From the NCBI GenBank assembly GCA_003707065.3, contig PPXM03000001.1:1240001-1304000 (forward strand): 64,000 nt of DNA, in the 5' to 3' direction. The stretch comes from Trigonopsis variabilis (taxonomy: Eukaryota; Ascomycota; Trigonopsidomycetes; Trigonopsidales; Trigonopsidaceae). Under the pieces are notes generated by a model that did not search any database, had not been told where the DNA came from, and saw nothing but the letters and a program-made list of their open reading frames with translations. Both the position numbers and the translations under genes were made by a program. Below are positions 17,709 through 52,155 of the stretch, one piece after another; within the stretch, counting starts at the first letter, position 1; each line of letters opens with the position of its first letter.

Positions 17709-20700
17709 ATGAACTCTCCTGGCTTGGGCTCGGAGAATCAACAAGGACGAGGAGCGGAACCTAAAAAGCCGTTTGTTATCAAGACTGACAAGCCTCGTCC
17801 TCATGTCTGCATGACATGTACAAGATCCTTTGCCCGCTTGGAGCATCTCAAGCGCCATGAGCGGTCTCACACCAAGGAGAAGCCTTTTCAGTGCCCGGTG
17901 TGTGAGCGATGCTTTGCTCGAAGGTAAGTGATGCCACTTTACGTCGTTTCATAGCTAACATTTAAATAGAGATCTCTTACTTCGACATCAGCAGAAGCTT
18001 CATGCGTCCTACCCCATCGCTCGAGCCAAAGGTAGAAAAGGAACTTCTTCCAAAAGCCGAGCATCGGCCGGTATCTCACCTTCTTCGTCTGCTACTCCTC
18101 CGGTCAAAATGAATGCTCCTCAAGGTTTGACCGATGATCCTTCGTTTAAAATGAAAATGGCTCCCAAAACATCCTCATCCTCCCGTCCTGGTCAACGGTC
18201 CAGAGCTGCGTCCTTTTCGGCTCAGACAGGTAATTCTTATATCAAAGTCAAGGATATTCCTACGTCTTCGGCCCAGCTCCCTCACACCGGCTCTGGAATC
18301 GTCAATTTCTCTACTCCTCAATTGGCAGCCATCAACCTCGACTCCAATTCCGACTCGGAAATCGGAAAGTTCTCTCTCAATGATTTTTACTCTCCAATGT
18401 TCATTAACCCTGCGTGGCTTGGAAATGGCTCGTCATCGCCAGAGACTCAGGCCCCTGGTTCTAGCCCCTCGATAGAAAGCCTCCTGCGAGGAATCCAAGC
18501 CAACAACAACAATAAAGGCTCCCCCAATAATCAAGATTTATACAATAATAATGTTGCTGCTGCTAACGATAACTCCAACTCGGTCAATAACAATTCTGCT
18601 ATCTTCTCGTCCTTTACAGGACAGCAGTCGGGTAACTTTCCCCAGATCAAGCAGGAGAATAATGAGAACCAATCGTTTGGCTGGATGCAAAATCTACATA
18701 GCGAGGAATTACCAGATATGCAATACAAAGACACCGGTCTTGGTGGCGTGATGGACCAAGGCCACATGGCCTCTCAAGCTCATGATCAGGCGCCAAGTGG
18801 CTTTCCTGATCTCTTGTCCGACTTGCGAGATAAAAATGGATCCAAAAACCAGTTTTCCAATCGACCAAACGCGCAAACCAATCAGGCCCTTGCTACTAGT
18901 CAACAAAACGGTGATCTTAGCAGAGGTCAACCAACGGCCATGTACAATGATTTTCTCAAGTCATTCATGGGCGATGAGATGGATCCAGAATCTTTTGGAT
19001 TCCCTGATCTCAAGTTTTCGGCCAGTGGATTGAGTCTGAGTGATATGATCATGCCAGATGCTGATGGGGAACCTCTTTTCAAGGAACCTTTCAATGCCAA
19101 CTTTCCTACCCAGCATAACCCAGTTACGCCTCCGCAAACGATAAGTCCCAATTCCTTGAATACGGAATCTTCTCTTCCTCTTGTCTCTGACCAAAATGGA
19201 CAACATTTTACTCCTCCCTCGTCCAAGCCGGCTTGTCTGTCGCGTGTGAATACATCTGAGTTGCCCACTCAAGTGCAGCAACTTCCGCAACAGGCCCCGA
19301 TGGATCAGGAACATTCCCTATTGGAGCATCCTCAACAGTATCTCTATTTGGTATCTGACGAATCACATAGCATAGGACCCAAGGTGACTCCTCAGATCAG
19401 ACTGCATCTTCTTGAATCTCTTTCTACTCCTACGCCATTTACCACCACTGCCAAGCCCCATTTGCCCAGCACAGTTGACCTTCAACGGTTCCTCGATGCT
19501 TACACTAGGGATTTTGTCCGGCATTTACCCTTTATTCATCCCACTCTTGAGATTACCGAGGAGAACGCACCTCTCTTATTGGCAATGGCTGCAATTGGAG
19601 CCTTGTATGAGTTTGAACCGGCCATTGCTCGAAATATCTTCGAAACTTCCCGGAGGTCCATCCATGTCTATCTTGAATGCCGTCGGGCACGATCTTCAGA
19701 GCTCAATAAGAACAATACAAATGAGGGAGAAGAAGAAACACCACTGTGGCTGGTTCAGTGTTTGACATTGGGAGTCATCTATGGATTGTTCTGCGGTGAC
19801 CCTGTCACCGCTGAAATTGCTGTTGCCCAAAGCTCAGCTGTTGTTTCTTTGTCTCAGTCGGCTAAGCTCCACCTCCTTCCTGCCAAGAAGGATATGAATA
19901 ATGCCAGCTTGCAAGAGAAGTGGAAACACTTTATTGATACTCAAACTAGAATACGGACTATGCATGCTGTTCATATCGTCAGCGTCATGCTTGCGACTGG
20001 TTTCAATATCGCTCCTGCCATGAGGGTCGAGGACGTTTCATGCGGATGTCCTTGTGATGAGTTCCTGTGGAGCGCGCGAACCGCAGACGAGTGGTACACT
20101 CTTTATAGGGAATACGAGAGCCGCGGCTCAGGTGAGAGCGCTTTATTTGGCTTGAATTATCATAGTCTTTTCAATTCCCTTTTATGTGCCAATTTCATGT
20201 CTGTGCCTCGCTTGCCTGTGGCTGGGTTCACCTTATTGTCGCTCATGTACGGTATCCATTCTCACATATATGAGCTCCTGCTGTCGAGACCTTCGAATGA
20301 CAAGTGGGATGAAACCGTGCGACCATTGGTCAATGCTACGAAATCGTGGGAGATGATCTGGTCGCTGAGCCCCTACGCGTCGTTGGAGCCCAGTGGACAA
20401 TACGGGCCAATGATGAATGATGGAGCGACCATGCTTTCACTTGCGAGGATTCGTCTTAGTGTTGATTACTCTCGCGTGAAAGAACTATTTTGGTCTCGTG
20501 ATTTCGTCGCTATGGGCTACGCTCTTTCTGAGATCAGCCACGAAGCTGGACTTAGAAAGGCCGCTGAATACAGCGCAGAGGCGATCTCTTTATGGGAAAA
20601 ACATTGCATTAGGTGGGACTCTGCTGCCGCTGGCCGCCAAACGTTTATCCATACCTTGATTACTCTTTTCGACGGTTCCTTGCTCCTGAGCGAGTACATC

Positions 20701-21132
20701 CAACGCCTTGAGACCAGGCTTGGAGTCATCCGATCTGGCAAGCCGACCTTGTCGCCTTCTGAAATTCAAGCTGCCTTGATGCTACTAGATGATGACGAAC
20801 GGGCATTATACATACGGTGTCGAGATCTCATCGTGCGAGTGGCTGATTTGGTGAGTCCCGGAGGCAATGGGCCTCAACCGAACCAGCTAGGCCGCCAGAA
20901 TTCATTCTCACGTCCCAAAATGGGAAGTGTTTCTCTGGATAGGCAGTTGAACGCGTTGAGTCTATCGTCAAACAGGCATGAATGGAGTTCCACTTCGTCG
21001 GGATTAGGATGCCAAATCTTGAAGACGGTTGGGACGATCTTTGAGAATTCGGTCGTGTGGCCATTCACTCCTGTCATGGCTGATGCTCTCAAGATCCGGG
21101 CCAGCCAGCTTGCGTCTATGGGAAGTGAATAA
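17709..21132 (+). CDS. C2H2 zinc-finger transcription factor with fungal-specific middle homology domain (KLF1-like)
   Basis: CDS join(17709..17923,17970..21132), 1125 residues. Two adjacent C2H2 fingers lie at about residues 33-88 (HVCMTCTRSFARLEHLKRH, then CPVCERCFARRDLLLRHQQ). The intron falls inside the second finger; its removal (46 bp, branch GCTAAC) completes it. A long low-complexity region rich in S, N and Q follows (about 90-520), typical of activation domains. The C-terminal half (about 570-900) resembles the fungal transcription factor domain, starting near LQRFLDAYTRDFVRHLPFIH. This finger pair and layout match S. pombe Klf1 and filamentous fungal relatives, nuclear regulators linked to long-term quiescence in fission yeast. 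The long upstream region suggests complex control. Confidence 0.87.
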
Positions 21133-48106: not shown

Positions 48107-49036
48107 GACCTTTGGAGTGATATGAATAGTCTCAATAAGCCTGTGTCTTAAAAGAAATGCTTATCAGAAGCTCACGTATATGGAAGATTGGAAGATAGGC
48201 TAGTCTCAATAAATTCCCCGTCGCAGCACAGTCACCAATCTAGTTTGATCGGAGGTTAAAGTCCTCGATTTGCAATTATGAAAATATACTACTCATTGAT
48301 GATAAGGCCTTATTCTGTCATTGATAACTTAAATAGCCGTCGCGTAGCTTCCCAGATAAGAATCTGGCCTCTCTTTACTTCCTCTCAAGAAATTTCCCGT
48401 CGCGTAAGACTCACGACAAGCAAGTCGCCTTTGTTGTGCAATTGACAAAACATATACTTCTTTTGTAAAATCAATAACATTAAATTTCTTATCAAATTGC
48501 TCATCATTGACAACTTAATTCGCCGTCGCTTATTGACTCTGCCAGACAAGAATCTTGACAGATTCACATCGTCCTCGACCAATCTCAATAAACCGCCGTC
48601 GCATAACTCCAGTAACAGAAACATCTCATGGATCAACACCTTTGACAGCCATAGCTGTATTCTCACTAGGAAAGGGTCCCCATAATCGCAAAAGTCATAT
48701 CCGCAGTCCAATTTGTCAGGACCAGTTTTGTCCAAAAGGTCGGCTCATCTTCTTTTCAGTTTCATGAGTCTATTGAGTGAATTCTTTCGTCGTCACGTCT
48801 TGCCAGAACATTAGATGTACATACATGTAAAGGTATCAAGACGACAAGCCAATAAACTTTTCGCCGTCGCAACGACGATAAGAAACTGTGCGGCTGCGAT
48901 AAGATAGGGTTAAGAAAAAAAGCTCAATTCACTAATGGGTAGACTGACGGCATGAGGGCCAAAAGGTGTGAGTATCAACTGAAAATAATCGGACCCATTT
49001 ATATTGTGAAGAGTGCTGCTTGGATTACAAGGCGAA
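48107..49036. promoter_or_regulatory. Divergent promoter of amino-acid permease and FAD monooxygenase
   Basis: A 930-bp region between two outward-pointing genes. It contains the CCGTCGC repeat array listed separately and several GATAAG/CTTATC words (near 48301, 48354, 48876 and 48898), which could be GATA-factor sites of nitrogen control. No protein gene was recognised. The FAD monooxygenase start is the ATG at 49037. Confidence 0.55.
48206..48885. repeat. Array of seven degenerate CCGTCGC-centred repeats
   Basis: CCGTCGC occurs at 48218, 48337, 48397, 48523, 48596 and 48864, with a degenerate copy (cgtcgtcacg) near 48788. Each is preceded by an AATAAA-, AACTTAAT- or AAGAAATT-like word and often followed by CAGAYAAGAATCTTG/CTGG. 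The left half is spaced roughly every 60 bp or twice that (119, 60, 126, 73 bp), which looks like old tandem units. One unit includes the palindrome CCAGATAAGAATCTGG (48352-48367). They look like repeated regulatory boxes. Confidence 0.6.
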
Positions 49037-50363
49037 ATGACCCAGGACGAATGGCATCCTTTGAATGTGGCGATTATTGGTTGCGGATTAGGAGGCTTGT
49101 CCACTGCTATAGCTTTACGCCGAGAGGGACATTTTGTTACTTTATATGAACGTTATCATTTTGCTAATGAAGTTGGAGCTTCTCTTAGCGCAGCGTCGAA
49201 CGGATCGAGACATCTAGTTAGATGGCAAGTTGATGTGAAAAAAGCCAAGCCGACCATTCTTCGCAATCTGATCCGTCAGAATTGGTCAACAGGAGAAGTC
49301 GAGGGTACCTATCCTTTGGGGGATTACAAAGAAATGTTCGGAGAGGTGAGACAAGGGAATTGACCTCAGTATTAATCGTTCTAGGAATATTATAACTTCC
49401 ATAGAGTTGATCTTCACTCAGAGCTGCTTCATACTGCCACCGAAACGACCTTACCTGGCCCTCCATGTGTTATCAAACTTGATCACAAAGCCGTTGATAT
49501 CCAAGCAGACGAAGGCAAGGTGACATTTGAGAATGGAGAGACAATCAGCGCTGATATGGTCATTGCTGCTGACGGTATTAGATCCCGTACTCGTGAGCTA
49601 TTGGGTGTTACTCCAGAGTATGATCGATCATCATCTTGTTGCTACCGATTCCTCGTCGACAGTCAAAACGCTATCAATGCTGGCCTCACCGATTTCTCTA
49701 AGGAGGATGCCATCTTATACTGGGGAGGTTTTGGGATCAACAAGATCGTGCTGTCCCCTTGCAGCAACAATGAGGTGCTGAGCGCTTATTGCTTTTACCC
49801 GTGAGTGAAACCAATGGTCTCTGCTAACCAATAGATCCACGTACAATAATCTCAAGACTGATGGCTGGAACCTTTCCGCCACGGCTCAAGAACTTCACGA
49901 CACTTACCCGGATCTAGATCCTAAGATAAAAGCATTATTTGACATTGCTACTGATATCAAAATGTGGCGATTGTACGTCCATAAGCCGTATCCTTATTGG
50001 GTCAAAGGCAAGTTCGCTCTCTTAGGTGATGCTGCTCACCCTATGTTGCCTGATCAATCCCAAGGGGCATGCGCTGCGTTCGAAGATGCCGCTGCTCTTG
50101 GATACATAACTTCCAAACAGTACCAATTATCCGTTCCTCAGATTTTGGAAGTGTATCAGGCGGTAAGAAAACCTCGTGCGACAAGGATCCAAGAGGCGAG
50201 CGCCAAGGCCAGGGAAGACATCACAGAACGCATTGGATTCAGTTCTAAACTAGACAAGCCAGGAAAACTCACTATTGAAGAAGTGTGCGGTTATGACATG
50301 GAAAGAGCAGTGGAGGATACCGTTGCAGCTCTGTTTCCCGAGGCCATTTCAGCTGAAAGCTAG
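49037..50363 (+). CDS. FAD-dependent aromatic-ring monooxygenase (salicylate hydroxylase-like)
   Basis: CDS join(49037..49345,49385..49800,49835..50363), 417 residues. A flavoprotein monooxygenase of the UbiH/salicylate hydroxylase superfamily that uses NAD(P)H and oxygen to hydroxylate an aromatic or similar substrate. The N-terminal FAD fold is VAIIGCGLGGLSTAIALRREG (GxGxxG). The family stretch EVGASLSAASNGSRHL follows, then the DG motif in VIAADGIRSRTREL, and the GD motif FALLGDAAHPMLPDQSQGAC near the C-terminus. Introns are 39 and 34 bp. Substrate is unknown. It shares a promoter with the permease and lies beside a zinc-cluster regulator, so it may be the main enzyme of a small catabolic cluster. 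Confidence 0.9.
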
Positions 50364-50433
50364 ACTTTACTAGTCGAAGAACTTATAGCCAGTATATATA
50401 TTTCTGTAAAGTTCTTGTCAATAATGAATTAAT

Positions 50434-52155
50434 CTAGACCAAAATCAATGATGCATAGGCTTTATAAACATAGTCTTCCCATATGTGCATTGAATCAATT
50501 CCACTGTTCTGCCATTCCCCAATGTCATGGATAAGGCGTCTAGTTCGTGACACATGAGCAAACCCATTCGTCACTTCCATCGATTCCAGGCGAGCAGATA
50601 CCCTCAATCGAAGTTTGGGACATTTAGATTCAATGGAGGCCACCAGAAGAGGAAACAATATTTCAGATTCTGCAGGAGATCCGAGAGGGATTTCCGAAAT
50701 TTTATCGACGATGTCCTCAGCGAGATTAGCATAGACCTGTTCGGTTCTTGTAAAAGCGTTATCTGTAATTGAAAGCAACCTAAGGAGCCCTGAATATCTC
50801 AGAGCAAAATCTACACTTATCAAGTCCTGCAGCAAACCTGCATCTAAAATATTCGGACGAACATCTGTCGTATTAAGAAAGAAAGCCTCCAATTGATTGC
50901 GACGGGAAGAAATCTCGTCAGGAGACAGCTCACCATTCAAGATGGAAGCCCGAAAAGCCATCAATTCCCCGTAGGCTACATAAAATGGACAAGATATACC
51001 AAATACTGGGTGGATGCCATCCTCGGCGAAATAATCGCCTGTCTTAAAGGGAACTGATCCCGACGTGAAAGTACTGACGATATCTATATAGCCAAAGGCT
51101 TGAATCAAAAACCGAGTAAGTTCATCAGCTGGATCACTCAGTAATAGTCTATCTACCAGCTGTTTGGCAAAAGACATGTGAAGACGTAATCGAGACAATC
51201 TAAAATTCGCAATCTCAATATAACATAGTAGGATGGTAGACGCCAACGCTGGTACTAAAATTTGTTTATCTGAACCCTGAGCAATCAATGTTCGGAGTTG
51301 CGAAAGCCCTAGTAGTCAGATTTCAGTTTGAAGCTAGCGTACCTGTTGTCTGATGACTGAGAACGACCACACTATAGGTCGAATCCTTGATTTGCATATG
51401 AGAGGCTGCAAAGGCTTGAATAAACGACATAATAGACGGTTCACTCCAGGCAAGTTTTAGAAAGAAGTTTAACATTGGATTGAAGTCGTTATTATACGTC
51501 ACAACAACAGCTGGAGAGACCATATGGACGTAATGAGCTAACAATCCAGAGTCTCTGTCGATATTCATCCCATACTTCAAAGAAGACATAGGTGATTGAT
51601 AGGAAGAGGCCGCTGCATTTGTAATTGGTATCAAGGCCGACTCGTTGCCTCTAAAAGACAGCTGAGGCCTATCTGACGACTCAATTAACATCATTCCGGG
51701 TGTACACCGCACTGGACTTTTTTCTGTCTTAACTCTCTCACATTGAAGACCTAGCCTTATACAGTCTCCACATCTAGGATATTTCTCGTCACATTTTTTA
51801 CGGCTTTTTATCAGTCAGATTGAATAGTGTTCGTACCGTCGTTTACAGGACAAACAACCGGATCGACTTCGGACAACTTTCTCCGCCCGAGATGGTTTTA
51901 TCTGAATGTTTGGACGGTCATGTCTTTCGTCAGAAGTTATATATCAAGTCACTCACGCTCCGGGACTACCTTTAGGGCGTCGTCCTCGCTTTCGAATCTC
52001 TCGCGTAGATTCACAAACCACATTTAATCGTTTGCATCTCAGGCAAGACCCGCTCTCCATAACGCAAACTTGCTTCTAAATTGATGTATTAGTTTTGCCT
52101 TATAAAGGTCAATACTCACAATAAGCGCACATCTATCACACGCATGAGCGGCCAT
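50434..52155 (-). CDS. Transcription factor with two tandem Zn2Cys6 zinc clusters and fungal TF domain
   Basis: CDS complement(join(50434..51308,51343..51803,51837..51923,51957..52075,52120..52155)), 525 residues. The first cluster has cysteines 6, 9, 16, 23, 26 and 33 (CDRCALIKQVC, then CLRCKRLNVVC). The second has 75, 78, 85, 92, 95 and 102 (CLSCKRRRKKC, then CGDCIRLGLQC). Both show the exact 2-6-6-2-6 spacing of the binuclear cluster. Between them lies a basic RKRGRRPKG stretch that resembles an AT-hook. The rest looks like a Fungal_trans_2-type regulatory domain. The four introns are 34, 33, 33 and 44 bp; all phases agree, and both zinc domains are completed only after splicing. Usual fungal regulators carry one such cluster. 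Likely regulator of neighbouring genes; direct target unknown. Confidence 0.8.

What the first reader, a model, noticed from the sequence alone, without database searches (positions are those of the whole stretch)
50434..52155. Regulator with two tandem Zn2Cys6 zinc clusters
Two complete binuclear zinc clusters lie in one reading frame, cysteines 6-33 and 75-102, both with exact 2-6-6-2-6 spacing. They are separated by a basic AT-hook-like RKRGRRPKG linker. Fungal Zn2Cys6 proteins nearly always carry a single N-terminal cluster and bind paired sites as dimers. A double cluster could let one polypeptide read both half-sites. The twelve cysteines appear only when four introns of 33-44 bp are removed with matching phases, which argues against chance.
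Basis: partly seen in the sequence, partly recalled or inferred. Interest (0 to 1): 0.75.

Follow-up and report, generated by a model that had tools for sequence, protein, structure and literature searches.

The report
Fungal regulator with two zinc clusters
This fungal gene encodes a gene-control protein with two copies of a zinc-based DNA-binding domain where one is usual; the layout is real but already reported in other fungi, and the first copy looks poorly suited to reading DNA on its own.

Summary
A five-exon minus-strand gene (52155-50434; introns 44, 33, 33, 34 nt) encodes 525 aa with two Zn2Cys6 clusters, C6-C33 and C75-C102, both spaced 2-6-6-2-6, plus a Fungal_trans_2/PF11951 domain. 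Chance is unlikely: a splice-aware motif scan of the window's two strands finds only these two clusters, and 20 simulated 64-kb sequences give none.

PF11951 proteins with two C6 domains are already in print for Tolypocladium and Cordyceps, with another first-cluster spacing (PMC6471507). The linker lacks an AT-hook core. Cluster 2 is canonical; cluster 1 is an outlier among 52 clusters compared (one K/R of six loop residues, the only Val at the last loop position), so two equivalent half-site readers are doubtful.

New here: at least four more double-cluster genes in this 11.35-Mb genome, 5 of 51 counted, with differing C-termini. Database relatives found have one cluster; no orthologue was found, so conservation of cluster 1 is untested.

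The parts
50434..52155 (-). whole coding region of the double-cluster regulator, five exons, 525 aa
   Evidence: spliced translation; Pfam
52013..52140 (-). cluster 1 (C6-C33), CDRCALIKQVCVMESGSCLRCKRLNVVC, split by intron 1
   Evidence: Zn_clus 25.7 bits on residues 1-73
52076..52119 (-). intron 1, 44 nt
   Evidence: only GT-AG solution giving a complete motif; retention gives a stop after 38 aa
51924..51956 (-). intron 2, 33 nt, in the linker; a 55-nt alternative to 51902 breaks the frame
51740..51856 (-). cluster 2 (C75-C102), CLSCKRRRKKCDEKYPRCGDCIRLGLQC, split by intron 3
   Evidence: Zn_clus best stretch 74-106
51804..51836 (-). intron 3, 33 nt
51309..51342 (-). intron 4, 34 nt
50467..51544 (-). 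Fungal_trans_2 (PF11951) domain, residues 168-515, over exons 4 and 5
49037..50363 (+). convergent neighbour: FAD-dependent monooxygenase-like gene with introns of 39 and 34 nt; possible target, not shown

Best explanation
A genuine fungal transcription regulator of the Zn2Cys6 + Fungal_trans_2 (PF11951) class that carries a second, divergent zinc cluster in front of the usual one. Cluster 2 is the main base-reading module and recognises a CGG-like triplet. Cluster 1 probably still folds around two zinc ions but reads bases weakly, acting as an auxiliary module that, with the basic 41-aa linker (13 K/R), lengthens or strengthens contact with DNA beside the main site or touches a partner. The PF11951 domain would regulate activity. 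Shown: gene model, both complete clusters, PF11951 domain. Inferred: zinc binding, the DNA site, the division of labour, regulation.
For: Gene model and domains; cluster 2 has six of six K/R in the loop pattern seen across the genome and resembles single clusters of PF11951-type database proteins; cluster 1 keeps all six cysteines and the K at the position equivalent to Gal4 K18 (alignment to Gal4 recalled) but has 1 K/R of 6, Val at the last loop position (1 of 52) and no Pro; cluster 1 still passes the Zn_clus cut-off.
Against: No binding, expression or zinc data. A low count of basic residues is also seen in L035, a single-cluster gene, so it does not prove loss of base reading. No orthologue was found to show how cluster 1 evolves. 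The fold comparison of the C-terminal exon was uninformative.
Confidence: 0.5

Rival explanations
1. Covalent pair: the two clusters act like the two halves of a Gal4-type dimer, so one polypeptide reads two half-sites.
For: Two complete clusters in one chain; nine Pro/Gly in residues 103-168 leave no three-heptad coil after cluster 2; the double layout recurs in 5 of 51 genes of this genome, in L001, L002, L003 and L014 with basic loops in both clusters.
Against: In this gene cluster 1 lacks most loop basic residues. Nothing rules out dimerisation through the C-terminal domain; the Upc2 C-terminal domain forms dimers (PMC5412356, passage). Short window intergenic stretches scanned for CGG/CCG pairs gave none in this gene's own 545-bp upstream region.
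Confidence: 0.27
2. Cluster 1 is a decaying relic of an earlier fusion or duplication, with no present role.
For: Loop divergence; cluster 1 and cluster 2 rank only 39th and 50th of 51 in each other's similarity lists; the database relatives found have one cluster.
Against: All six cysteines with exact spacing are kept, and three in-frame-stop introns around the clusters still need correct splicing.
Confidence: 0.18
3. Gene-model artefact: exons 1-2 are not joined to the rest in the mature messenger.
For: No RNA evidence; introns of 33-34 nt are at the short end of those seen in other clusters (35-64 nt).
Against: Unique splice solutions; no motif by chance in the window or simulations; exon 3 has no in-frame Met before cluster 2; a 34-nt intron in the neighbouring FAD gene.
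Confidence: 0.05

Closest known systems
CCG_02279 (Tolypocladium guangdongense) and CCM_00582 (Cordyceps militaris), double-C6 DUF3468/PF11951 proteins, PMC6471507 (passages and section 3.3 seen)
   Same: Two C6 zinc domains plus the PF11951 domain in one protein; second cluster spaced 2-6-6-2-6.
   Different: Their first cluster is spaced 2-6-5-2-6, here 2-6-6-2-6.
nosA/UME6-named Zn_clus + PF11951 regulators (P0001-P0009)
   Same: Zn_clus and PF11951; their RSRSGC-x2-C-RLRRKKCDE cluster resembles cluster 2.
   Different: One cluster in each of the nine; 487-839 aa; similarity was limited to the cluster region in the search rows (6-11% of the query for the seven).
Double-cluster genes L001, L002, L003, L014 of the same genome
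   Same: Two Zn_clus stretches in one model each.
   Different: Linkers of 9, 28, 27 and 37 aa; L001 and L014 have Fungal_trans/PF04082 instead; no middle-domain match in L002 and L003; L001 needs no intron in either cluster.
Gal4/Ppr1-type dimeric zinc-cluster proteins
   Same: The cluster itself; cluster 2 region matches Ppr1 (1pyi, residues 70-105, E 0.0012).
   Different: One cluster per chain and dimerisation by a following coiled coil (PMC5559640 and PMC5412356 passages).
C2H2 + Zn cluster dual-specificity factors (PMC5415576 passages)
   Same: More than one DNA-binding module near the N-terminus.
   Different: There the modules belong to different families; the passages seen list no Zn cluster + Zn cluster class.

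Membership tests
Zn2Cys6 / Fungal_trans_2 (PF00172 + PF11951) regulators | Zn_clus above curated cut-off | tested here: met
   42.3 bits whole protein, two stretches; cluster 1 piece alone 25.7; cut-off 21
Zn2Cys6 / Fungal_trans_2 (PF00172 + PF11951) regulators | PF11951 domain | tested here: met
   124.3 bits, E 7.4e-36, residues 168-515
Zn2Cys6 / Fungal_trans_2 (PF00172 + PF11951) regulators | binds DNA and regulates transcription | not testable with these tools
   needs binding and expression assays
Double-C6 DUF3468 proteins of PMC6471507 | two C6 domains plus PF11951 | tested here: met
   comparison with the paper's text
Double-C6 DUF3468 proteins of PMC6471507 | first cluster spaced 2-6-5-2-6 | tested here: not met
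   first cluster is 2-6-6-2-6
Double-C6 DUF3468 proteins of PMC6471507 | common descent with CCG_02279/CCM_00582 | not tested
   their sequences were not at hand; they were not among the hits
Gal4-type coiled-coil dimers | heptad coil shortly after the cluster | tested here: not met
   Pro/Gly at 111, 116, 117, 127, 133, 140, 152, 159, 167 in residues 103-168; a residue count, not a coil predictor
AT-hook | RGRP core (recalled) | tested here: not met
   RGRRP only; no Pfam AT-hook row at E up to 1
Upc2-like C-terminal fold | structural similarity | tested here: inconclusive
   sequence match to Upc2 at E 0.011; model of exon 5 alone pLDDT 71.6; no PDB match at E <= 0.001

The most novel reading that the evidence does not exclude
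In this small-genome fungus, single-chain double-cluster DNA-binding regions arose repeatedly (at least five genes with different linkers, intron positions and C-terminal domains), as an alternative to coiled-coil dimers for reading paired sites.
Probability: 0.2. Interest if true: 0.65.

Novelty: new member of a known kind. Interest (0 to 1): 0.36.

Why it matters
Zinc-cluster proteins are the largest fungal regulator family, and site spacing is usually set by dimerisation and linker. A natural single-chain pair would test whether covalent tethering can replace dimerisation. The genome's five double-cluster genes form a ready comparison set: L001 and L002 look like internal duplications with basic loops in both clusters, while this gene has one strong and one divergent cluster.

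Tried and rejected
Orthologues: three protein searches. The full protein gave 7 hits at E <= 0.001 among the 7992 candidates scored. Residues 1-110 gave 2 weak hits (E 0.21 and 0.49) among 6 candidates. Residues 108-525 gave none at E <= 10 among 7998 scored. The tool reaches only relatives sharing short exact words, so absence is not shown.

Internal duplication of the cluster in this gene: not supported by similarity ranks, 39th and 50th of 51. The introns sit 21 and 20 nt into the motifs, near but in different phase; L045 also has one at 20. In L002 both introns sit at 10, which fits duplication of an exon-intron unit there.

AT-hook: rejected. C-terminal fold: exon 5 only, pLDDT 71.6, no significant PDB match. 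CGG/CCG pair census upstream of this gene: none. RNA families and tRNAs in the window: none. Lineage: not determined; CDC48 scores highest against chains named cell division control protein 48, which places it no closer than fungus-like.

Frequency comparison: 5 of 51 here against one double-C6 protein reported among 139 C6 genes of Tolypocladium, Fisher two-sided p 0.0057. Weak, because the methods differ, the section I read does not say that the rest have one, and both counts are lower bounds. Of the 49 loci fetched, 4 (L024, L031, L034, L036) gave no complete motif in my one-intron scan and cannot be judged; on resolvable genes it is 5 of 47.

Literature: eight searches ran. Names written Zn(II)2Cys6 are hard to search there, so more reports may exist.

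Full report
What is there. On the minus strand, 52155-50434 encodes a 525-aa protein in five exons with introns of 44, 33, 33 and 34 nt. It holds two Zn2Cys6 clusters, C6-C33 and C75-C102, each spaced 2-6-6-2-6, joined by a 41-aa linker with 13 K/R, and a Fungal_trans_2 (PF11951) domain at 168-515 (E 7.4e-36). The cluster 1 piece alone passes the Zn_clus cut-off (25.7 against 21 bits).

Is it chance? A splice-aware scan of the 64-kb window on both strands finds only these two motifs at three settings, and 20 simulated 64-kb single strands give none. Each in-cluster intron has one solution that completes the motif. Retention of any intron stops the frame early, and only Met1 and Met18 lie before cluster 2. 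The neighbouring FAD monooxygenase has introns of 39 and 34 nt that restore a full FAD_binding_3 match; 15 clusters in 13 other genes are split by introns of 35-64 nt. There is no RNA evidence.

The two clusters differ. Among 52 clusters from 47 genes of this genome, cluster 2 is ordinary. Cluster 1 has one K/R in the six loop residues (only L035 is as low), is the only one with Val at the last loop position, where the other 51 have K or R, and is one of 6 without Pro in the middle loop; it keeps Lys at the position equivalent to Gal4 K18 (the Gal4 numbering is recalled). The clusters rank 39th and 50th of 51 in each other's similarity lists. I therefore read cluster 2 as the main reader and cluster 1 as an auxiliary or divergent module. 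This is inference.

Relatives. Nine database proteins were returned, seven at E <= 0.001 and two weak; each has one motif. P0008, the one I aligned by itself, aligns its cluster with cluster 2 best. A search with the C-terminal part returned nothing. In the same genome the best other match is a single-cluster gene, L019 (29% over residues 73-245, E 1.1e-7). PF11951 gives 13 matches at 11 places by my count.

Other double-cluster genes. The genome (11,351,025 bases, 15 contigs) gives 54 Zn_clus matches, a lower bound. I fetched the surroundings of the 53 outside this gene as 49 loci; with two genes in L004 and the window gene I count 51 genes. Four more have two clusters: L001 (C5, both clusters in one exon, 9-aa linker, Fungal_trans), L002 (C9, both clusters split at the same motif position), L003 (C13) and L014 (C13, Fungal_trans). 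Their models were joined by eye and are provisional; L001 needs no splicing in the clusters (77.2 bits, two stretches). Four of the 49 loci gave no complete motif and cannot be judged.

What is known. PMC6471507 reports a double-C6 DUF3468 (PF11951) protein in each of Tolypocladium and Cordyceps, spaced 2-6-5-2-6 and 2-6-6-2-6 (section 3.3 read). PMC10305253 cites an Alternaria factor with two Zn2Cys6 domains and a transmembrane domain (passage). [quoted passage not shown] The layout is thus not new. Passages of PMC5559640 and PMC5412356 describe the usual dimer mode and possible monomer binding.

Verdict. Real gene, real double cluster, known kind. The bolder point is the recurrence of the layout in one small genome, with C-termini of several kinds. 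Whether 5 of 51 is unusual needs a uniform count in other fungi; the comparison with one reported among 139 in Tolypocladium (p 0.0057) is weak for the reasons given under tried and rejected.

Noticed in passing
window 48218-48870 (+): Six exact CCGTCGC copies on one strand (48218, 48337, 48397, 48523, 48596, 48864) in the stretch between the permease and the FAD monooxygenase. The window has 15 in all, 3.65 expected. Flanks are partly alike at 179-186 nt spacing, so part of this is duplication. Genome-wide, close pairs are no commoner than the reversed control (24 against 23), but a chain of five copies was listed only here. Possible operator array; binder unknown.
   Followed up: partly
L001:1427-1681 and L002:1063-1418 (own genome C5 and C9): Double clusters that look like internal duplications: L001 with both in one exon and a 9-aa linker, L002 with an intron at the same motif position in both clusters.
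   Followed up: partly
window 17959-21132 (+): Large regulator with Fungal_trans/PF04082; the frame begins with a sequence that by eye resembles the end of a C2H2 finger.
   Followed up: no
window 50363-50434: The FAD monooxygenase and this regulator are convergent with about 70 bp between their stops.
   Followed up: no
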